Positions 1-27,161 of a stretch of 29,504 nucleotides of DNA are shown here, piece after piece. The notes under the pieces were generated by a model. It was not told the DNA's origin and did not search any database. It saw only the letters and a list, made by a program, of their open reading frames with translations. A program made the translations under genes and the position numbers. The DNA comes from a virus. Positions within the stretch are counted from its first letter, which is position 1; each line of letters starts with the position of its first letter. The stretch covers positions 1-29,504 of IMG/VR virus record IMGVR_UViG_3300036791_001411. One strand, written 5' to 3'.

Positions 1-1242
1 GGCTAACTGCTTATGACGGGCGGCGCTGTTCTGCGCGATGCCCTGGCTGGCTTCGCTGATGAACTTGCCGCGCACGGCGTTGACTGCGCGCCGCGCCATC
101 GTCATGTAGTGACTGACCAGCGCCTCCTGATCCTCCTGGCTGCGCGTCCTTTGGGCGCGCTCCATGGCAATCGCGAACTGCCGCCGCCCGAAATCGTCGC
201 TCCGGAGCTGCTGCTGCAGCCGGCCGATAAATTCGTTGCGCACGGCATCGAAGCTCACGGGGTTGGGATAGAAGGCTTGGAGGGGCGCCAGCGCCTGGCC
301 GATGGACGCATCCATCTGCTGCCCGATCTGCCCGTTCACGCTATCAGCGAAATGCGTCCACTGCGCCTGCTGACTGCGCTGCTGGATCTGGGCGAGCTGC
401 TGGCGGGAATACGCCAGCTCGCGCTCCACGGGAGAAGGCTGCGGCTGCTGGGGCTTGAGAATCTCCTGGTCGCTGCGGTAGGTCCCGCCGGTAGGACCGC
501 CCTTGAGCCACCATTCGGCGGCTCTGGCGCCGTTCAGGATGTAATCCCGCACCTGCGGGTCTTCCTGCTGCGCGCCCATCTGGTACATGTAATCGAGGAA
601 GCTGTGCAGGACCGGCGTCGCCATGGCCTGGTAGGCTTGCGGCTGATTCTGGGCGAGGAAGCGCGGCATGACCGCCGCCACCATGCCCATGCCCTGCGGC
701 GAGAAAGCATGCCAGTTCTGCACCCACTGCTCCGCGTTCTGCGGATCGCCGGATGCAAAGTCATGCTCCATCGCAATACGGTCGCTGTACGCCTCGCGCA
801 TGGCCTGAACCTCCTGCGCGGGCGGGAACATATTGATGTCGACGCGGCCGTCTTCGCCCACCAGGCCGAGCGCGCGCCCGATTTCCTGCGCGTACTTGTA
901 GCCTGCATGGACCGTCTTCCAACGCGTTTCGTTGAGGTTGGGAATGTCGGGCTTCTCATCGATGTTATCGGTGATCCCCTCCTGCCCCGGCTCCTCAATG
1001 CCAGGCGCTTCCTGTTCCTGTTCTCCGATAGCAACTTCGCTCTCGTCGGGAATCGCGTTGATCTCGCTGCTGACTTCCTCCGATACCGCTGGCGCCTCAG
1101 TGACTGAGCCAGATCCGTTGCTCAGTCCCAGGTCGGCGTTGATCAGGTCGCGGCTGGAGGGTGCCGCCGCCGTGCCGGAAGTGGACACGGAAGGCGGAAT
1201 TACGGGTGCGGAAGATGAAGCTGTAGTTAGGGACGTTCCCAT
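1..1242 (-). CDS. Scaffold-like/capsid assembly protein, 3' end missing
   Basis: An open frame of 414 codons runs from ATG at 1242 off the left edge with no stop. AAGAGG at 1248-1253 (minus) is a well-placed ribosome-binding site 5 nt before the ATG. The N-terminal ~100 residues are Ser/Thr/Ala-rich and then strongly acidic (many Glu/Asp, with Pro and Gly), suggesting disorder. The remainder is Gln- and Ala-rich and probably helical (QQQ clusters around residues 260-350). Such acidic, helical, Gln-rich proteins directly after the portal gene are usually scaffolds or head-assembly proteins; the major capsid gene would then lie beyond the left edge. I recognise no catalytic motif. The assignment rests on position and composition, not on a motif. 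The other long frames here look like shadows, because only this frame has protein-like composition and a ribosome-binding site. Confidence 0.7.
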   Translation of the reverse strand, partial: MGTSLTTASSSAPVIPPSVSTSGTAAAPSSRDLINADLGLSNGSGSVTEAPAVSEEVSSEINAIPDESEVAIGEQEQEAPGIEEPGQEGITDNIDEKPDIPNLNETRWKTVHAGYKYAQEIGRALGLVGEDGRVDINMFPPAQEVQAMREAYSDRIAMEHDFASGDPQNAEQWVQNWHAFSPQGMGMVAAVMPRFLAQNQPQAYQAMATPVLHSFLDYMYQMGAQQEDPQVRDYILNGARAAEWWLKGGPTGGTYRSDQEILKPQQPQPSPVERELAYSRQQLAQIQQRSQQAQWTHFADSVNGQIGQQMDASIGQALAPLQAFYPNPVSFDAVRNEFIGRLQQQLRSDDFGRRQFAIAMERAQRTRSQEDQEALVSHYMTMARRAVNAVRGKFISEASQGIAQNSAARHKQLA

Positions 1243-1276: not shown

Positions 1277-1302
1277 TATCCGGTGGCGCTATCCGGTGGC
1301 GC
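1277..1302. repeat. 13-bp perfect tandem duplication across the portal stop codon
   Basis: The 13-mer TATCCGGTGGCGC occurs twice head to tail (1277-1289 and 1290-1302). The portal TAG stop (1289-1291) spans the junction between the copies. Because 13 is not a multiple of three, gain or loss of a unit would change the C-terminal reading frame of the portal. Confidence 0.9.
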
Positions 1303-3712
1303 CCATGCCTGCGGGCGGCGCGGTTCCGGAGAGATGCGGCGCGGCCGGGACGGTACCCGGCATAGCGCCGGTAGGCGGCGGACCCGCCTTACCTTGCGGT
1401 GGCCTTCCAGGCGGTGCTGCTGGTCCTGGACCTGCCGGACCGGGAGGCGCTGGACCGGGTCCCGCTGGACCTGGGCCAGGCCCGCCGGGTCCCGGAGGAC
1501 CGGGGGGACCGGGAGGCGTACCGGGGGGCGGCATGGTCAGATCGAGATGCGCCATCCCCCACGCAATCACGTTGCTGTAGCCCTGCGGATTGGTGTCCTT
1601 CGCGGTACGGCCGGTCTCGCTCTGACACCATTCCTTGGTTACGCTCGCGCAGAACTGGTGATCGTCCTCCCAGACATCTACCGGGGTGGACGGATCGACT
1701 TTGCCGGTCTGCGGATTGGTGCTGGGCTGTCCCTGCAAGAGCCGCGCAATCACGGCATACACTTTGTCGCGATTGTTCAGATTGGGGACCGTCCAGTTGT
1801 CCATCCCGAATACCTGCTGCACCTGCGGCAGGTTGTTGGGATGCTGGATTCCAAACAGCGGCCAGGTCTGCGGCTTGTCCATCAGGAACATGAGGAAGTC
1901 TCTGCGCTGCCCCCACGTCATGGGCATGGCCTCTTCCGTCTCGCAGTGCCACTTACCGTCGGCTAACTCGGCGAGCGAGGCGAGCTGCTCTTCGGGCGCT
2001 CCCTCCTCGTCGCCGCCGCTCGCGGCCGCATACTTCGCCTTAAGGCGAATGCCGTTCTCAAAGACTTGCGCCCAAAAACCGCGCATCTCGCTCCAGGTGA
2101 CACCCAGTTGCATCAGCGCCTGGTTGCGGCGCAGCTCCGCCTCGCGTGCGGTCTGGCTGGGACCTTCGCCGCCAAAGATGGCGGGCAGGACGCCGGTAAT
2201 CTCTCTGCCGGTCTCGCGCAGCCCCGCCGTCCACTGCGCGACCTGCGAATCCATGCTCGCGGTGGGCGCCTTCCAGATGGAGTTACTGAGCTGCTGCCCC
2301 ACGCCCGGCCGCGCCGGGACGCCTTCGCCGGGCAACAGGGCATGCTGGCGCATCTGCACCGGGTCCAGGATCATGGGGTCGAAGAGGAACCAGGGGATGG
2401 CCCGTTCAAAAGTCTCGACCGCGATATTGTGCATATCGTTGATCAGGTCCTGGATGCTCACGAAGTCCTGGCAGATCGGGTCCGCGAAGATGTAGTCGCT
2501 GACGTCGGGCTTACACATGGCCCAGTGCTCACACAGCTTTTCCTCCTCGATATCCACCAGCTCGTCGGCAATCATGGTCAGCTTGCAGCCGCGCGGGAAA
2601 TTCTCCGTCAGCAGATTGCGCTTCTCCTCGTCGTCGATAAGCTGGTACATCAACGGTTCCAGCCAAATGCGCGAGAACAGGATGCGGTTGCGCCGGCTGG
2701 TCATCTGCACGCTGGTGGGCGACATGGCGGCTTCGCGCGCCACCGTGCCCGCGCTGCTGCTCCCGCCGCCCGCGCCGAGCGCCGGGTACGGCGCGTCGTT
2801 CGCCACCAGGCGCTCGCGGATGTCCTTGTTGTCGCCGTAGAGCGCGAGCAGGCGCCCCTTATGCTCGTCATATTCGTAGAGCAGCCAGGGCAGGTCCTTG
2901 ATGTCGCGCGAGTAAAAGGGCGCGGTCACCTCAAAGATGTTGGCGAGGGTAAATTCCACCGCGCCCTTGGCGTAGCTGGTGGTGCCCTGCATCTGCGGGA
3001 CCTGCGAAGACTGCGGCGCGATATAGGACTCCGGGCCGAGCGGCGCGGCGCAGTTGGGGCAGATGTTGCCGGCCTGCTCCGCCTGCTCTTCGGGGATCTC
3101 CGCGCCGCACTGCAGGCAACGGTAGTAGCCGTCCTCAAACTGCTGGTCCTCAAGCCCGACAATGGGCTCGTCCACGGTGCCGTACTTGCTCTTGTCGGTG
3201 ACAAAGGCGGTGTAACCGAACGTGGTGCCGGCCTTCCAGACGCTGTTCGCCAGGTTGCGCTGCTTGCGCTCCACCTCCCACTTGAAATACAGCTTGCGCG
3301 CCTCCAGATCGGCGCGGCGCGCCAGCCGTGTCGCGGTCTCGTCGTCGGTGCGGTCGGGCATGCACTTGACCACCGGGGCGCGCTGCCCGAGAACGGCGAC
3401 GAACTTACGCTTGTCGCCGCGTATCATGTTCAGCACGTAGTCGTAGCGCCCGGTAGTGGCGCCGCGATCCGTGTAGCGCACCGTGCCGATGGGCGTCCAG
3501 TCCGCGATCTGCCCGTCGACCAACTGCGGCGCCAAGTACTGATGCCCCCGGTCGTAATACTCAAAACGCCGCGCCTGGTTGTACTGGTAAGTCTTCTCCG
3601 GATCGGCGTCGCCGCGCACATCCAGCTTGACCATGTTGGTCAAATCCGGCTTGAGGGTCTCAAGAATTTGCTGTTTGGACGGTGCGGCTTTCGCCGGTCC
3701 TAAGTCGATCAT
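1289..3712 (-). CDS. Portal protein with zinc ribbon and collagen-like tail (807 aa)
   Basis: Forms the dodecameric head vertex through which TerL pumps DNA. Length, charge pattern and place between terminase and a scaffold-like gene fit a large P22-type portal. It starts with ATG at 3712, overlapping the upstream stop as ATGA. Residues 1-180 hold the portal-like alpha/beta N-terminus. Cys199/Cys202 (CLQC) and Cys218/Cys221 (CPNC) form a zinc ribbon, probably in the wing or clip region. The body continues to about residue 726. The last ~81 residues (727-807) are almost pure Pro, Gly and Ala in GPP/GPG collagen-like order, unusual for a portal. The stop lies in a 13-bp tandem repeat. No signature unique to portals is quoted; the call is from overall similarity and synteny. 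Confidence 0.8.
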   Translation of the reverse strand: MIDLGPAKAAPSKQQILETLKPDLTNMVKLDVRGDADPEKTYQYNQARRFEYYDRGHQYLAPQLVDGQIADWTPIGTVRYTDRGATTGRYDYVLNMIRGDKRKFVAVLGQRAPVVKCMPDRTDDETATRLARRADLEARKLYFKWEVERKQRNLANSVWKAGTTFGYTAFVTDKSKYGTVDEPIVGLEDQQFEDGYYRCLQCGAEIPEEQAEQAGNICPNCAAPLGPESYIAPQSSQVPQMQGTTSYAKGAVEFTLANIFEVTAPFYSRDIKDLPWLLYEYDEHKGRLLALYGDNKDIRERLVANDAPYPALGAGGGSSSAGTVAREAAMSPTSVQMTSRRNRILFSRIWLEPLMYQLIDDEEKRNLLTENFPRGCKLTMIADELVDIEEEKLCEHWAMCKPDVSDYIFADPICQDFVSIQDLINDMHNIAVETFERAIPWFLFDPMILDPVQMRQHALLPGEGVPARPGVGQQLSNSIWKAPTASMDSQVAQWTAGLRETGREITGVLPAIFGGEGPSQTAREAELRRNQALMQLGVTWSEMRGFWAQVFENGIRLKAKYAAASGGDEEGAPEEQLASLAELADGKWHCETEEAMPMTWGQRRDFLMFLMDKPQTWPLFGIQHPNNLPQVQQVFGMDNWTVPNLNNRDKVYAVIARLLQGQPSTNPQTGKVDPSTPVDVWEDDHQFCASVTKEWCQSETGRTAKDTNPQGYSNVIAWGMAHLDLTMPPPGTPPGPPGPPGPGGPGPGPAGPGPAPPGPAGPGPAAPPGRPPQGKAGPPPTGAMPGTVPAAPHLSGTAPPAGMGATG

Positions 3713-4621: not shown

Positions 4622-7576
4622 TCAGTTCCTCCAGGTTTCCTTAGCGCGGCGCCCGGCGGCGCGCGGAAAGTAGATCGGCTTGCTCACCGCCTCCGACTCC
4701 GCCTTGTAGTCCTCTTCCGCCTTGCGCGCCACCCAGACGCGCGTGTTGCCGTCCAGCACGCCGCCATGCATCGCCGTGACCTGCTCCAGGCGCCGGTTGA
4801 AGTGCTCTTCAAACGGCTCGCGGCGCTTCTCCCTGGAGTGCGCGAAGACCAGGTAGCGGAAGCCGTCGTAAGGATCGTCGCCGTCGCGCTTCTCCACGTC
4901 CTCCGGGTTGCTCAGAGAATGCACCACGTTCTGCAGGACCTCGATGATGCACGGGCAGGAATCGTGGATCAGGAGACCGGGCAGGACCTCCTGCTTCTCG
5001 CGGGTCATGAAGGCGTCGCGGTATTCGATGGCGCGCACCGGATCGGCACGGAGCAGGCGCAGAAACAGCTCATGACTGAAGGTCTCCTTCGCCACCTTAG
5101 TGAGCGGCCACCAGCGCAGTTGCGAACGGATGTACTGCGCCCCCGCGATGCGCTGGTTGGGCGCGCGCCGCACCATGATGCCGTAGCCCTGCTGGTGCCG
5201 CATGCGGTCGACCTGGTCCGCGTCGCCGGTCTCTTCTTCGGTGAGCAGGACGCTGTTGGGACCGAGCACGCGGCGGATGCCGGCCGCGAGCTGGTCCGCG
5301 ATGGTGCGCGTGTCGCTGCGTTTCTCCCACGCGTCGGGCGAGAGATACAGGGTCAGGTAGTTTTGTTCCAGGCCCTTCAGGTCCTCGATGGAGGCGAGCG
5401 CGATCTCCACGCCCCACGCCTCCGCGCCTAACCTACTGCGCACCAGCTCGCGGTAAACATGGAAACGGCCATCGTCGTTCTCGCAGCCCCAATACGCCGC
5501 GCCATCGTGCGCATAGCCCCAGTCCATGGCAATCAGGCGATTCAGCCAGGGCTTGAGCGGTTTCGCCGCGATCACATGACGGGCTTCTTCGGGCTCGCCG
5601 GTCAAGGGGCCGGTGGGACGAAATTCAGAGAAAAAGATCCCAGAAAGTGAATCCCAATCGCCATCGAGAAAAGCGCGGCGCTCTGCTTCGGGCAAGCCCA
5701 TCAACTTCTTCACATAGCCGGGATCATTCGCCAGCGCAGGATTATCCTTGAGCTTCATGGGCAGGAAGATGCGCGTCTCGCCCGTGAGCGGGTCGTTGAT
5801 CCGCGTGTTCGGCTGAATGATGCGGCCGTCCGGGCCTTTGGGCTTGATGAAACGATCACGCACCCAGGCATGTCCTGGCCCACCAGGGTTGCAAGTCAGT
5901 AGCGTCTGGCAGTGCAGCTCCGGATGCACGCTGCGGATGCAGGAACGGACCATCAGATAACTCTTGAGATCGGGGACCAGGGTCGCCTCTTCCAGGAGGA
6001 AGCGCTGGAATTCCTGGCCCTGATACTTGGTGTAAGTGTCCGCGTCGTCTAAGTGGCCCAACACGATCTTGGCGCCGGTCCGGAATTCAAAGAGCGGAGA
6101 AGGGCGCTCCCGGAATACGCCGCCGAAGGGCTCGTACATGCGCCGCGCCTTGTCGATCCAGTCGCCTAAGTCAATAACGTTCTTGCGCAAGACCAGCGCG
6201 CGGTAGTAACGATGGTTCAGGTAAGTAATGTCGCAAGGCACTTCATGCGCCGGATCGTGATAGGGATTGCCCTTCATCAGCCAGGCGATGCCCAGGGCGG
6301 TATTATGCGTGACGATAAAATCGTCCGTAATATAAAGATTGTTGGGATGATCGACCTGTATGCACTGCGCCGTCTCGCAACCAACCTTCTCAATCGACAC
6401 CATGCGGCGCATCGGCTCATCCTTAAAAAACTTCCCGGTTTTGCCGCAACGCTCACGCTTTCGCATCAGCTTGAAAAGCGATTGCGGATCGGAGCCATAG
6501 ATGTAGAGCGTAAAGGCATCCCGGCATTGAACATAGTGCCCATTCGGATCGCGGTAGCCAGCGGAGCCGCGCGTCTTGGACACCTTGTAGCCAAGACTCC
6601 AGAGCACGCCACGCATATCATCCGCAAGCTGTTCACTGACTGAGATGAACGAACAATGACCCCGCGCATCCGCATAGCCATCCGTGTCCATCAGGCCCTG
6701 AATCAGCTCGCGCCGCGTCGCGGTGCTCGACCACTTATAACAATCGGGAATAAATTTGTCGTGAGCCAAACAGCCATAGACCTTGAGCGCCGTCAACTTA
6801 TCGCGCAATTCCGTCACAGCCAACACGCGCCAGTCACTACCGCCGGCCTTGACAAATTCCAACCCTGTTCTGGCTCTGACAATATCCACAATTTGGAGAT
6901 CGTCACTTGAAAACCTTATCCATCCCCCACGCAGGCAACCATCACCCAAAAGCACCCCAAGCACATATGGATCAACCGTCGCAGCACTCCCCGAATAACC
7001 GGGAGAATACTCAACCGGCTGCGTAAGCGGAATCAGAACCGCGCTTGCGCCGTTCCCATTCTCGTCACGAACCGGATGCTTTTCGTTCTCGCTGTCGATC
7101 CTGTTTTTGAGAAAGGCGGTGGTATAAACCTTCGCTTCTATCGAATCGTCATCATCGAACGGATAATACCGGCGGTCCGCCTTGATCTTGCGTGCGGTCA
7201 ACCGGGCAAGCCACAAATGATCATCAGTAACAAGAGTTGATGCCCCGTCCGCAAATGTGACCGCAAAAATGTCACGCTCCCCCAGCGGATAAACAGCGAT
7301 TACGTATGCTGTGCCGCCCGTGGGGTTGGAGATTAAAGATCCAACACGAAGCTTCCCCATCGTCGTCCAGCCAAACGGCGTCAAGATCCTGGCGTGAAGC
7401 GGCTGTCCTTTCCCTCCGCCCTTCGCTCCGCCCGCGCAGATCTCGTCCTCTTCCAGGAGCAGAGCTTCGGTCTGCGGTCCGGGGTGCGGACGCCACAGAA
7501 CGTTGACGCCAGGCGGAATAGGATCGTCCTGACGCGCAAAAGCCGCGCGCACCGGCTCAGTCTTACGGGACGGCAC
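4622..7576 (-). CDS. terL: Terminase large subunit, precursor with in-frame intein (984 aa; 616 aa after splicing)
   Basis: Motor and nuclease that cuts and packages phage DNA. It starts with GTG at 7576, right after the TAA of the upstream gene, with AAAGGCGAAGG upstream. The Walker A P-loop (GGAKGGGKG, residues 49-57) is cut by an intein (58-425) and resumes with TALGIAW (426-432). Walker B plus catalytic Glu is FLLEEA (526-531). The coupling-motif region is TCNPGGPGHAW (561-571). The RNase H-like nuclease begins at LIAMDWGY (681-688), with Asp685 as a likely metal ligand and Asp872 in the LIHDS stretch as another candidate. The spliced P-loop reads GKG-T rather than the usual GK[S/T], a slight variant. 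Without splicing the ATPase site is disrupted, so activity depends on protein splicing. Confidence 0.92.
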   Translation of the reverse strand: MPSRKTEPVRAAFARQDDPIPPGVNVLWRPHPGPQTEALLLEEDEICAGGAKGGGKGQPLHARILTPFGWTTMGKLRVGSLISNPTGGTAYVIAVYPLGERDIFAVTFADGASTLVTDDHLWLARLTARKIKADRRYYPFDDDDSIEAKVYTTAFLKNRIDSENEKHPVRDENGNGASAVLIPLTQPVEYSPGYSGSAATVDPYVLGVLLGDGCLRGGWIRFSSDDLQIVDIVRARTGLEFVKAGGSDWRVLAVTELRDKLTALKVYGCLAHDKFIPDCYKWSSTATRRELIQGLMDTDGYADARGHCSFISVSEQLADDMRGVLWSLGYKVSKTRGSAGYRDPNGHYVQCRDAFTLYIYGSDPQSLFKLMRKRERCGKTGKFFKDEPMRRMVSIEKVGCETAQCIQVDHPNNLYITDDFIVTHNTALGIAWLMKGNPYHDPAHEVPCDITYLNHRYYRALVLRKNVIDLGDWIDKARRMYEPFGGVFRERPSPLFEFRTGAKIVLGHLDDADTYTKYQGQEFQRFLLEEATLVPDLKSYLMVRSCIRSVHPELHCQTLLTCNPGGPGHAWVRDRFIKPKGPDGRIIQPNTRINDPLTGETRIFLPMKLKDNPALANDPGYVKKLMGLPEAERRAFLDGDWDSLSGIFFSEFRPTGPLTGEPEEARHVIAAKPLKPWLNRLIAMDWGYAHDGAAYWGCENDDGRFHVYRELVRSRLGAEAWGVEIALASIEDLKGLEQNYLTLYLSPDAWEKRSDTRTIADQLAAGIRRVLGPNSVLLTEEETGDADQVDRMRHQQGYGIMVRRAPNQRIAGAQYIRSQLRWWPLTKVAKETFSHELFLRLLRADPVRAIEYRDAFMTREKQEVLPGLLIHDSCPCIIEVLQNVVHSLSNPEDVEKRDGDDPYDGFRYLVFAHSREKRREPFEEHFNRRLEQVTAMHGGVLDGNTRVWVARKAEEDYKAESEAVSKPIYFPRAAGRRAKETWRN
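6302..7405 (-). mobile_element. LAGLIDADG intein in the TerL P-loop, class 3-like, with Gln at position 1 (368 aa)
   Basis: Intein residues are Gln58-Asn425 of the precursor; the +1 extein residue is Thr426. Block A starts QPLHARILTPFGW, where Gln replaces the usual Cys/Ser nucleophile. Block B (GASTLVTDDHLWLA, 111-124) has Thr at B:7, His at B:10 and Trp122 at B:12. Block F has Cys405 at F:4 (TAQCIQV), and block G ends VTHN-T with Thr423 at G:5, His424 and Asn425. Trp-Cys-Thr at these places is the signature of class 3 inteins, which use the block F Cys as first nucleophile. Homing endonuclease motifs are VLGVLLGDG (205-213) and LIQGLMDTDG (291-300). Hand counts of sample lines give 37-53% GC here against about 68% in a flanking TerL line, which suggests recent arrival. 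Confidence 0.92.
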
Positions 7577-10594: not shown

Positions 10595-11377
10595 ATGCAA
10601 GCGTTCTACATCGTTCCAGTGCCCGAGGGCGGATCGCTGCCGCCAGGGTACGTTTCGGGAGGGCCGGTGCCGCCGGGGTATCCCACCGATCCCGGTTATG
10701 GACAGGGACGGCCGCTGCCGCCGCACCTTGGCGGTGGACCCGCCTACCCGCCCGGCCTGCATCCTGGCGGCGGACCAATTTATAACCCGCCGGTCGATCC
10801 GGGCTGGGGACAAGGACATCCGTCGCCGCCTGGCATCTGGGGCGGCGGACCTCCGGCGCATGTCGGTGGCGGGCCGGCTTATCCTCCCGCTTATCCGGGC
10901 GGAGGACCAGCTTATCCTCCGGGCCTGCATCCTGGCGGAGGCCCCATGCCCGGCGGTCCCACCGACCCCGGCTATGGACAGGGACATCCGCTGCCTCCGC
11001 ATCTGGGCGGTGGACCGGCCTATCCGCCCGCGTATCCCGGCGGCGGGCCTGCTTACCCGCCCGGATTGCATCCCGGTGGCGGGCCGGTCTATCCCGGCCA
11101 GCCCAGCCAGTTGCCGTATCCCACTGCTGGCGGCGGAGACTTCCCCAGCCACCCCATCACTCTGCCGCCCGGCGCAAGCATTCCGCCGGAGGAGATCTGG
11201 CCCCCCGCCAAGCCCGCTGCTCCCGGCGCGCCCAGCAACCCCAGCGTCGTACCGCCGGACAAGGTCGCGGTCTTCATCTTCGTTCCGGGCATCGGGCAGA
11301 AGTGGATGATCGTCGACAAGCCGGCCATCGACGCCAAGCCGCCGGACGCCAAGCCGCCTGCCGGACAGCCGAAATAG
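10595..11377 (+). CDS. Pro/Gly-rich repeat protein with conserved C-terminal core (260 aa)
   Basis: Starts MQAFYIVPVPEGG after an AGAGAGGAAAA ribosome-binding site. Residues ~20-165 are imperfect repeats built from PTDPGYGQG, PLPPHLGGGPAYPP and GLHPGGGP units. After a Pro-rich linker, residues ~222-243 form a short hydrophobic core (KVAVFIFVPGIGQKWMIVD). Uncultured tailed phages often encode such proteins: a highly variable Pro/Gly region and a constant 'VPG-x-G-x-KW-x-x-ID' end. No enzyme motif, signal peptide or membrane helix. The repeats may change length by recombination at the nucleotide level. It could be a virion fibre-like or linker protein. It is followed closely by a related gene. 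Confidence 0.8.
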   Translation: MQAFYIVPVPEGGSLPPGYVSGGPVPPGYPTDPGYGQGRPLPPHLGGGPAYPPGLHPGGGPIYNPPVDPGWGQGHPSPPGIWGGGPPAHVGGGPAYPPAYPGGGPAYPPGLHPGGGPMPGGPTDPGYGQGHPLPPHLGGGPAYPPAYPGGGPAYPPGLHPGGGPVYPGQPSQLPYPTAGGGDFPSHPITLPPGASIPPEEIWPPAKPAAPGAPSNPSVVPPDKVAVFIFVPGIGQKWMIVDKPAIDAKPPDAKPPAGQPK

Positions 11378-13646: not shown

Positions 13647-14085
13647 CCGTCCGGGGATGACGGGGAACTACGTCTTGATCGGGCAGACGCCGGTCGTGGA
13701 ACCCGACCTGTTGACGTGGGCGCGATGGTTTGAAGAGAACGACCGCCGCGTCGCCCTGAGCCGGGTGCTCGATATCGCCGTCGTCAGCACTGTCTTCCTG
13801 GGGATCGATCACAACTACTTCCGCTTTGCCGGCTACGGCAAGCCTTTGCTGTTTGAGACCATGGTCTTTTGGGAAGACGAAGGCGGCGAAGAGCAGGACC
13901 GCTGCAGCACTTGGGCGGAGGCGGAAGCCATGCATGCCGCCATGGTCAGAGAAGCCGGCGCGCCGCGCACTTACTTCGCACACCTCTTGCGCCAGGCGCG
14001 GGGAGCCCTGCGCGAGGCGCGCGATAGTCTGAGAGAAGCAATCAAGGAGCTGAGATGGCACAGTGCCCCATGCGACCGGAGTTGA
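13633..14085 (+). CDS. Conserved phage protein with 'EPDLLTWARWFE' motif (150 aa)
   Basis: AGGAGG (13621-13626) sits 6 nt before GTG 13633, which fixes the start; ATG 13627 directly abuts the site and TTG 13615 precedes it. The protein has YVLIGQTPVVEPDLLTWARW, NDRRVALSRV, VSTVFLGIDHNYF and LLFETMVFW, a pattern I know from many small phage proteins whose function is unknown. The C-terminal ~50 residues are helical and charged (LREARDSLREAIKEL), an addition beyond the usual family length. Its end overlaps the homing-endonuclease-like gene by 31 bp. Confidence 0.75.
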   Translation: MPLLDRPGMTGNYVLIGQTPVVEPDLLTWARWFEENDRRVALSRVLDIAVVSTVFLGIDHNYFRFAGYGKPLLFETMVFWEDEGGEEQDRCSTWAEAEAMHAAMVREAGAPRTYFAHLLRQARGALREARDSLREAIKELRWHSAPCDRS

Positions 14086-14708
14086 CGCCGCTGCCCGAGC
14101 GCATGAAGAACCTGCCGCTAGATGCGCGGGGGTATAAACAGCAGCACCCGCTTTTCGATACGTGGCGTGGCATGATCCGGCGGTGCCATGATCCGGCATA
14201 TCGGTATTACCGGAACTATGGCGCCAGGGGAATCATGGTCTGCCAACGCTGGCGCGAATCGTTTTGGGCCTTCGTGGACGATGTCAGCCCTAAACCTTCA
14301 GGCGCTTTTTCCCTGGATCGCAGAGAAAATGACGGACACTATGAACCGGATAATGTACGCTGGGCGACACGGCAGGATCAGGCGCGCAACACACGATTCA
14401 ACCGGAAGATTACGTTGGCTGGCAGAACACAAACGCTAGAGGATTGGACTAGAGAATTAGGGATTGCCAAGTCCACATTGTTTAATCGCCTTCGTCTCGG
14501 CTGGACTGAAGAACGGACACTAACCACGAAGCCGCACCGGAAGCTCCCCAACTATACCTATTTCCCGCCGTGCGGAACTGCAGTCTGTAAGGCAATGGGT
14601 ATCGCGCGCGAGACCGTAGAGAGCCGTATCCGGCGCGGGTGGTCGTTTGAGGATGCTATTTCTAAGCCTGTAGATCACCGGAGGAATCGCCATGGAGCAG
14701 CCGCGTAG
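14055..14708 (+). CDS. Homing-endonuclease-like protein fused to a duplicated neighbour N-terminus (217 aa)
   Basis: AAGGAG upstream supports ATG 14055. Residues 31-112 match a free-standing phage nuclease family: HPLFDTWRGMIRRC, YYRNYGARGIMVC, W-x4-FW-x-FV, then SLDRRENDGHY-x-PDNVRWAT, in the style of HNH-like homing enzymes. Residues 118-156 (ITLAGRTQTLEDW, ELGIAKSTLFNRLRLGW) and 174-205 (AMGIARETVESRIRRGW) are two similar HTH modules for DNA binding. Residues 8-21 (PELTPLPERMKNLP) repeat the start of the next gene, so the nuclease seems to have joined a copy of that gene's 5' end. It overlaps that gene by 17 bp. It is likely selfish, and nuclease activity is inferred. Confidence 0.82.
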   Translation: MAQCPMRPELTPLPERMKNLPLDARGYKQQHPLFDTWRGMIRRCHDPAYRYYRNYGARGIMVCQRWRESFWAFVDDVSPKPSGAFSLDRRENDGHYEPDNVRWATRQDQARNTRFNRKITLAGRTQTLEDWTRELGIAKSTLFNRLRLGWTEERTLTTKPHRKLPNYTYFPPCGTAVCKAMGIARETVESRIRRGWSFEDAISKPVDHRRNRHGAAA

Positions 14709-26538: not shown

Positions 26539-26748
26539 ATGCTGAACCGGGAACCCATTCTCACAGCCTTAGCGCAAGCGACCTACGAAGAGATTCAAAG
26601 CGAGTACAAGAGGCGTATCGCTGGTCTGCGCAAGACGCGATCCGGCGGCAATCGTTGGGCAAAGCACAACCCGAGTGCGCTTAAGGGTTGCCGCTGCGGA
26701 AAGTGCATCGCCGCCAGAAAGCGCAGAAAGTCGCAAGAGGCAGCTTAG
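26539..26748 (+). CDS. Small basic protein with CRCGKC (69 aa)
   Basis: AAAGGAGACGAACCAAGAAGT precedes the ATG. N-terminal helix EPILTALAQATYEEIQSEYKRRIAG, then basic RKTRSGGNRWAKHNPSALKGCRCGKC, ending in RKRRK. The Cys cluster and charge suggest nucleic-acid binding. No family recognised. Confidence 0.66.
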   Translation: MLNREPILTALAQATYEEIQSEYKRRIAGLRKTRSGGNRWAKHNPSALKGCRCGKCIAARKRRKSQEAA

Positions 26749-26750
26749 AC

Positions 26751-27161
26751 ATGAACCTATACGAGACCGACTTCCATGCCTGGGCGTTTGAACAGGCTCA
26801 GAAGATACGCGCTGGCGAAGCCATCGACGCCGAGAATGTCGCAGAGGAGCTGGAAAGCTTGGGACGCAGCGAACAGCAACAACTGGAAAGCCGTCTGACG
26901 ATCCTCCTGACGCACTTATTGAAGTGGGAGTTTCAACCCGACCGGCGCTCATCAAGCTGGAAGGGAACCATCAAGGAGCAGCGCCATCGCATTGCCAGGC
27001 TGCTTTTGAAGATGCCCAGCCTGCAAGCCTGCCTGGACGAGAGCATTGCCGATGCTTACGCCATCGCACGGATCAGCGCAGGCGTTGAAACCGGGATGGT
27101 CGAGGAGGACTTCCCGTCAGAGTGCCCTTACAGCACGGAACAGATCTTGAGCGAGCAATGA
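26751..27161 (+). CDS. DUF29 family protein (136 aa)
   Basis: Full-length match to DUF29 by pattern: YETDFHAWAFEQAQKIRAG, AEELESLGRSEQQQLESRL, LTHLLKWEFQPDRRSSSWK, IKEQRHRIARLL and FPSECPYSTEQIL. DUF29 proteins are common in bacterial chromosomes and less usual in phages; function unknown. ATG 26751 has GAGG nearby. In a unit ending at the bidirectional terminator, it may be a transferred accessory (moron) gene. Confidence 0.85.
   Translation: MNLYETDFHAWAFEQAQKIRAGEAIDAENVAEELESLGRSEQQQLESRLTILLTHLLKWEFQPDRRSSSWKGTIKEQRHRIARLLLKMPSLQACLDESIADAYAIARISAGVETGMVEEDFPSECPYSTEQILSEQ

What the first reader, a model, noticed from the sequence alone, without database searches (positions are those of the whole stretch)
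6302..7405. Gln1 class 3-like intein interrupting the TerL ATP-binding loop
All three class 3 marks are present: Trp at B:12 (W122), Cys at F:4 (C405) and Thr at G:5 (T423), with a non-nucleophilic Gln at position 1 and Thr as +1 residue. It also keeps both LAGLIDADG motifs, so it may still be mobile. It sits inside Walker A, next to the catalytic Lys, so packaging is impossible until it splices. Class 3 inteins are rare, and a Gln1 version with a complete homing endonuclease in a terminase is worth biochemical study.
Basis: partly seen in the sequence, partly recalled or inferred. Interest (0 to 1): 0.85.

Follow-up and report, generated by a model that had tools for sequence, protein, structure and literature searches.

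The report
Ordinary phage class 3 intein, Gly1
A phage DNA-packaging gene carries a self-removing protein insert (an intein) of a well-known kind at a well-known site; the reported unusual first residue (Gln) comes from placing the start of the insert one residue too late.

Summary
The 984-aa TerL gene (window 4622-7576, minus) does carry an intein with the class 3 signature (W122 at B:12, C405 at F:4, T423 at G:5), B:10 His, terminal His-Asn, Thr+1 and both LAGLIDADG motifs. Three lines agree. (1) 105 related WCT inteins at P-loops start directly after the Walker A Lys; Gln58 aligns with their common position 2 (usually "AQPL"). (3) An AlphaFold model (pLDDT 87) aligns Gly57 with residue 1 of solved class 3 inteins 6bs8, 6riy and 6rix. 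Lys|Thr is the published "classic" P-loop site (TerL1-a). Class 3 inteins are not rare (1701 published) and 82.5% carry LAGLIDADG motifs. It is a new member of a known kind, in a phage with almost no close relatives in the collections searched. A small point of interest: Gly1 occurs in 6 of 126 WCT inteins here, this one included, although an engineered A1G change abolished splicing of one class 3 intein. Splicing and homing were not shown.

The parts
7409..7576 (-). N-extein of TerL (residues 1-56), GTG start, ending in Walker A ...GGAKGGGK
   Evidence: GTG directly follows an in-frame TAA; PHROG terminase matches
6302..7408 (-). class 3 intein, residues 57-425 (369 aa), Gly1 to Asn369
7406..7408 (-).
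   Evidence: profile register; model residue 10 aligns with residue 1 of 6bs8, 6riy, 6rix, 1vde
7217..7219 (-). His120, B:10
   Evidence: invariant column
7211..7213 (-). Trp122, B:12 of the WCT triad
   Evidence: invariant column
6938..6961 (-). first LAGLIDADG motif (block C), LGVLLGDG
   Evidence: invariant G columns
6677..6706 (-). second LAGLIDADG motif (block E), LIQGLMDTDG
   Evidence: PF14528 LAGLIDADG_3 above its gathering score
6362..6364 (-). Cys405, F:4, inferred initiating nucleophile
   Evidence: invariant column
6308..6310 (-). Thr423, G:5 of the WCT triad
   Evidence: invariant column
6302..6304 (-). Asn425, G:7, last intein residue
4622..6301 (-). C-extein of TerL (residues 426-984 plus stop), starting with Thr+1 = Walker A Thr
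   Evidence: residues 430-984 are 88% identical to L149

Best explanation
It is a class 3 (WCT) intein with a LAGLIDADG homing-endonuclease domain, inserted between the invariant Walker A Lys56 and the Walker A Thr (T426) of a phage TerL. Position 1 is Gly57. Inferred mechanism: Cys405 (F:4), assisted by His120 and Thr423, attacks the Lys56-Gly57 peptide bond to make the class 3 branched thioester. The acyl group passes to Thr426, Asn425 cyclises, and an O-N shift joins Lys56 to Thr426, restoring GGAKGGGKT and an active 615-aa packaging ATPase. The endonuclease would cut intein-free TerL alleles and so spread the element by homing. Shown here: anatomy, register, family membership by sequence and fold, and the intein-free site in a relative. 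Inferred: splicing, order of steps, endonuclease activity.
For: Key residues fall in invariant columns. Of 126 distinct inteins with all three WCT marks (this one included), 105 are preceded by ...GK, and all 105 have T or S as +1; position 1 is mainly Ala (64) and position 2 mainly Gln (58), so 'GQPL' aligns with 'AQPL'. Intein-less TerLs read GARGGGK-TAAGIFW (L152, the closest annotated relative), GGAAGGGK-S (L017, L018, L156) and GK-T (L153-L155) with no extra residue. AlphaFold model pLDDT 87.4, pTM 0.88. VIA-align: class 3 inteins 6bs8_C Z 18.4 (rmsd 1.5, 123 aligned), 6riy_A Z 18.3, 6rix_B Z 18.0, with model residue 10 (Gly57) at their residue 1; PI-SceI 1vde_B Z 26.9, model 10..378 aligned to 1..454. 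The tree puts it in a group of 29 that are mostly TerL-like P-loop inteins (SH-aLRT 94). Lys|Thr is the published TerL1-a site (PMC5050341).
Against: No splicing data. No closely related intein copy was found, so purifying selection could not be tested. Gly at position 1 is a minority state (6 of 126), and A1G abolished trans-splicing of the divergent class 3 AceL NrdHF intein (PMC7891396), so reduced or conditional splicing is possible.
Confidence: 0.92

Rival explanations
1. One reading: a Gln1 class 3 intein of 368 aa that leaves GGGK-G-T in TerL.
For: Gln is also non-nucleophilic. One relative, L096, has a true Gln at position 1, so Gln1 is possible in the class.
Against: It needs an extra Gly between Lys and Thr of Walker A that no intein-less relative examined has. 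It shifts block A by one residue against the relatives. The structural alignment places Gly57, not Gln58, at residue 1.
Confidence: 0.03
2. The intein has lost or impaired splicing (a Gly1 pseudogene-like intein), so this TerL is inactive or splices only under certain conditions.
For: A1G abolished splicing in AceL NrdHF. [quoted passage not shown]
Against: All other catalytic residues are intact and the 984-codon frame is open. TerL is normally essential. Five other WCT inteins also have Gly1, including L022, which groups with this one (support 91).
Confidence: 0.1
3. Splicing follows a class 2-like route in which Thr+1 attacks the N-terminal junction directly, and Cys405 is dispensable.
For: Position 1 lacks a nucleophile, as in class 2 inteins.
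Against: The complete WCT triad and close kinship with WCT inteins; class 2 inteins had been found only in KlbA (PMC3196547).
Confidence: 0.02

Closest known systems
Class 3 P-loop inteins of phage TerL and other ATPases (e.g. Pseudoalteromonas phage HM1, Methanosarcina virus MetMV, Parabacteroides phage PF672P2; IMG/VR L019-L022)
   Same: WCT triad, insertion directly after the Walker A Lys, T/S at +1, LAGLIDADG endonuclease, about 30-45% identity
   Different: Most have Ala at position 1; this one has Gly
TerL1-a intein site of mycobacteriophages (PMC5050341)
   Same: Insertion between the invariant Lys and Thr of the TerL P-loop
   Different: Different phage; whether the TerL1-a inteins are class 1 or class 3 was not checked here
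Class 3 DnaB inteins of M. smegmatis (6bs8) and M. chimaera MchDnaB1 (6rix, 6riy)
   Same: Splicing fold (Z about 18), WCT triad, catalytic residues
   Different: The solved chains are 139-146 aa, without this endonuclease domain, and come from DnaB
AceL NrdHF split class 3 intein (PMC7891396)
   Same: Class 3 chemistry inferred here, shown there
   Different: AceL is split, has Met at B:12 and Ala1, and its A1G mutant is inactive; this one is contiguous with Trp at B:12 and natural Gly1

Membership tests
Class 3 intein | no Cys/Ser/Thr nucleophile at intein position 1 | tested here: met
   position 1 is Gly57 by alignment, empty site and structure
Class 3 intein | Trp at B:12, Cys at F:4, Thr at G:5 | tested here: met
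   W122, C405, T423 in invariant alignment columns
Class 3 intein | His B:10, His-Asn at the C terminus, Ser/Thr/Cys at +1 | tested here: met
   H120, H424, N425, T426
Class 3 intein | HINT fold like solved class 3 inteins | tested here: met
   AlphaFold model vs 6bs8, 6riy, 6rix: Z about 18, rmsd 1.5-1.9
Class 3 intein | splicing through an F:4 Cys branched thioester | not testable with these tools
   needs expression and C405 mutants
LAGLIDADG (DOD) homing-endonuclease intein | two LAGLIDADG motifs in one chain with acidic residues | tested here: met
   LGVLLGDG and LIQGLMDTDG; PF14528 23.0 bits vs cutoff 22.5; PI-SceI fold matches up to Z 28
LAGLIDADG (DOD) homing-endonuclease intein | site-specific cleavage of the empty allele | not testable with these tools
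   needs a cleavage assay
TerL1-a type P-loop insertion | insertion between Walker A Lys and Thr of TerL | tested here: met
   K56|G57...N425|T426; empty site GARGGGK-T in L152; site defined in PMC5050341
   Gln58 is position 2

The most novel reading that the evidence does not exclude
A naturally Gly1 class 3 intein that splices efficiently. This would show that the strained Ala1 junction inferred from AceL NrdHF (where A1G is inactive) is not a general requirement, and that other residues compensate in the TerL P-loop lineage.
Probability: 0.6. Interest if true: 0.3.

Novelty: new member of a known kind. Interest (0 to 1): 0.2.

Why it matters
It adds one more phage lineage to the known spread of class 3 inteins at P-loop Lys|Thr sites. 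It corrects a boundary that would have produced a false "Gln1" report and a wrong mutagenesis plan (Q58 instead of G57). The Gly1 state gives a small, testable question about how class 3 inteins activate the N-terminal bond.

Tried and rejected
Gln1 register: rejected. Exact degenerate search of viral contigs for the joined empty site of this lineage: no match, so an intein-free allele of the same species was not found; L152 is the nearest empty site. TerL C-extein alone as query in viral contigs: none. The portal query found one close relative, L149, but that contig starts about 12 bases downstream of the insertion site, so its intein status is unknown; a two-row TerL query found only the same contig. 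The window's first 25 kb has no near-DNA match among phage records. Relatives of the genome cannot be drawn for a virus record. Tori and Perler 2011 (PMC3133030) is not held. Survey biases: the search patterns came from endonuclease motifs and the seed alignment from mostly P-loop inteins, so the fractions with endonuclease motifs (103 of 126) and at P-loops (105 of 126) are not population estimates.

Full report
What is there. The window is a 29.5-kb virus record. On its minus strand, 4622-7576 is one open frame of 984 codons with a GTG start directly after an in-frame TAA. It matches several PHROG terminase-large-subunit families across the N-terminal, intein and C-terminal parts. A portal-like gene follows downstream (1289-3712; weak PHROG portal match), as expected for a packaging cluster.

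The class 3 marks are real. In an alignment with 12 inteins from other phages and viral contigs, the B:10 His, B:12 Trp, F:4 Cys and G-block Thr-His-Asn are invariant. Both LAGLIDADG motifs are present, and PF14528 passes its gathering score.

The N-terminal boundary is off by one codon. I profiled 147 open frames from the fetched loci and the window with an HMM of the alignment. Among 126 distinct inteins with all three WCT marks (this one included), 105 are preceded by ...GK, and in all 105 the +1 residue is Thr (78) or Ser (27). Position 1 in those is Ala 64, Leu 6, Val 6, Gly 6, Ser 6, Cys 5 and others; position 2 is Gln in 58. The typical relative reads GK|AQPL...TP.GW, and the window reads GK|GQPL...TPFGW. 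So Gly57 is position 1 and Gln58 is the ordinary position-2 Gln.

The empty site agrees. The closest annotated intein-less TerL found (MW202566.1, L152; 41% identity over the aligned part) reads GARGGGK-TAAGIFWLIKP. Arthrobacter, Vibrio, Escherichia and Sulfitobacter phage TerLs read ...GK-S or ...GK-T at the same place.

Structure agrees. An AlphaFold model of the intein with 9 extein residues at each end (mean pLDDT 87.4, pTM 0.88; model residue 10 = Gly57, 378 = Asn425) was aligned to solved structures. For the class 3 inteins 6bs8_C (Z 18.4, rmsd 1.5, 123 aligned), 6riy_A (Z 18.3) and 6rix_B (Z 18.0), and for PI-SceI 1vde_B (Z 26.9), model residue 10 is aligned with residue 1, and 378 with the last intein residue (in 6riy the range runs one residue further). 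The extein tails are low-confidence (pLDDT under 50), so the model says nothing about the geometry of the scissile bond itself.

How it most likely works. The anatomy predicts class 3 splicing as described in PMC7891396 and PMC7664689: Cys405 attacks the Lys56-Gly57 bond, the acyl group passes to Thr426, Asn425 cyclises, and Lys56 is joined to Thr426. Until then the ATP-binding loop is interrupted, so an unspliced TerL should not hydrolyse ATP. The endonuclease would let the element home into empty TerL alleles. None of these steps was tested here.

Comparison with what is known. [quoted passage not shown] PMC7891396 counts 1701 class 3 inteins, 82.5% with LAGLIDADG motifs. In crAss-like Delta phages TerL typically contains an intein (PMC7886860). 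In the tree, the window intein sits in a group of 29, most with TerL-like P-loop flanks (SH-aLRT 94), next to L022, which is also Gly1 (support 91; long branches, quick method). In the phage collection 749 records match it, the best at about 30-36% identity. It is therefore a new member of a known kind.

What remains of interest. Gly1 is a minority state (6 of 126 here). In the divergent class 3 AceL NrdHF intein, A1G abolished splicing, which its authors read as loss of a strained junction (PMC7891396). If this intein splices well, that requirement is not general. The near-relative contig L149 (TerL 88% identical, portal 87%) begins about 12 bases downstream of the insertion site. That would fit an assembly break at an intein-polymorphic site, but it may be coincidence.

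Noticed in passing
L149 (IMGVR_UViG_3300010397_000780) 1-1666: The only close relative found (TerL 88%, portal 87%) is a contig that begins about 12 bases downstream of the intein insertion site, perhaps an assembly break at an intein-polymorphic site.
   Followed up: partly
L096 (viral contig, P-loop QTGGGK): A relative with a true Gln at intein position 1 and all three WCT marks; it would be the real Gln1 class 3 case.
   Followed up: no
L029, L050, L051, L081, L102, L105, L106 and others: Inteins with Ser or Cys at position 1 as well as Cys at F:4, so both the class 1 and the class 3 nucleophile are present; which one initiates splicing is unclear.
   Followed up: no
L004 2875-6264: A TerL frame that appears to hold two inserts: the class 3 P-loop intein and a second, different intein-like insert further downstream.
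   Followed up: no
L152 (MW202566.1) about 2400-2560: The N-terminal part of this TerL, just before Walker A, is in a different frame from the rest (frameshift or sequencing error).
   Followed up: no
window 14055-14708: HNH endonuclease gene (phrog_3377, E 1.7e-57), another possible mobile element in this phage.
   Followed up: no
window 26688-27161: DUF29 protein (PF01724, E 1.3e-45).
   Followed up: no
window 10595-11377: Gly/Pro-rich frame with repeated GGGPAYPPG-like units; no Pfam match.
   Followed up: no
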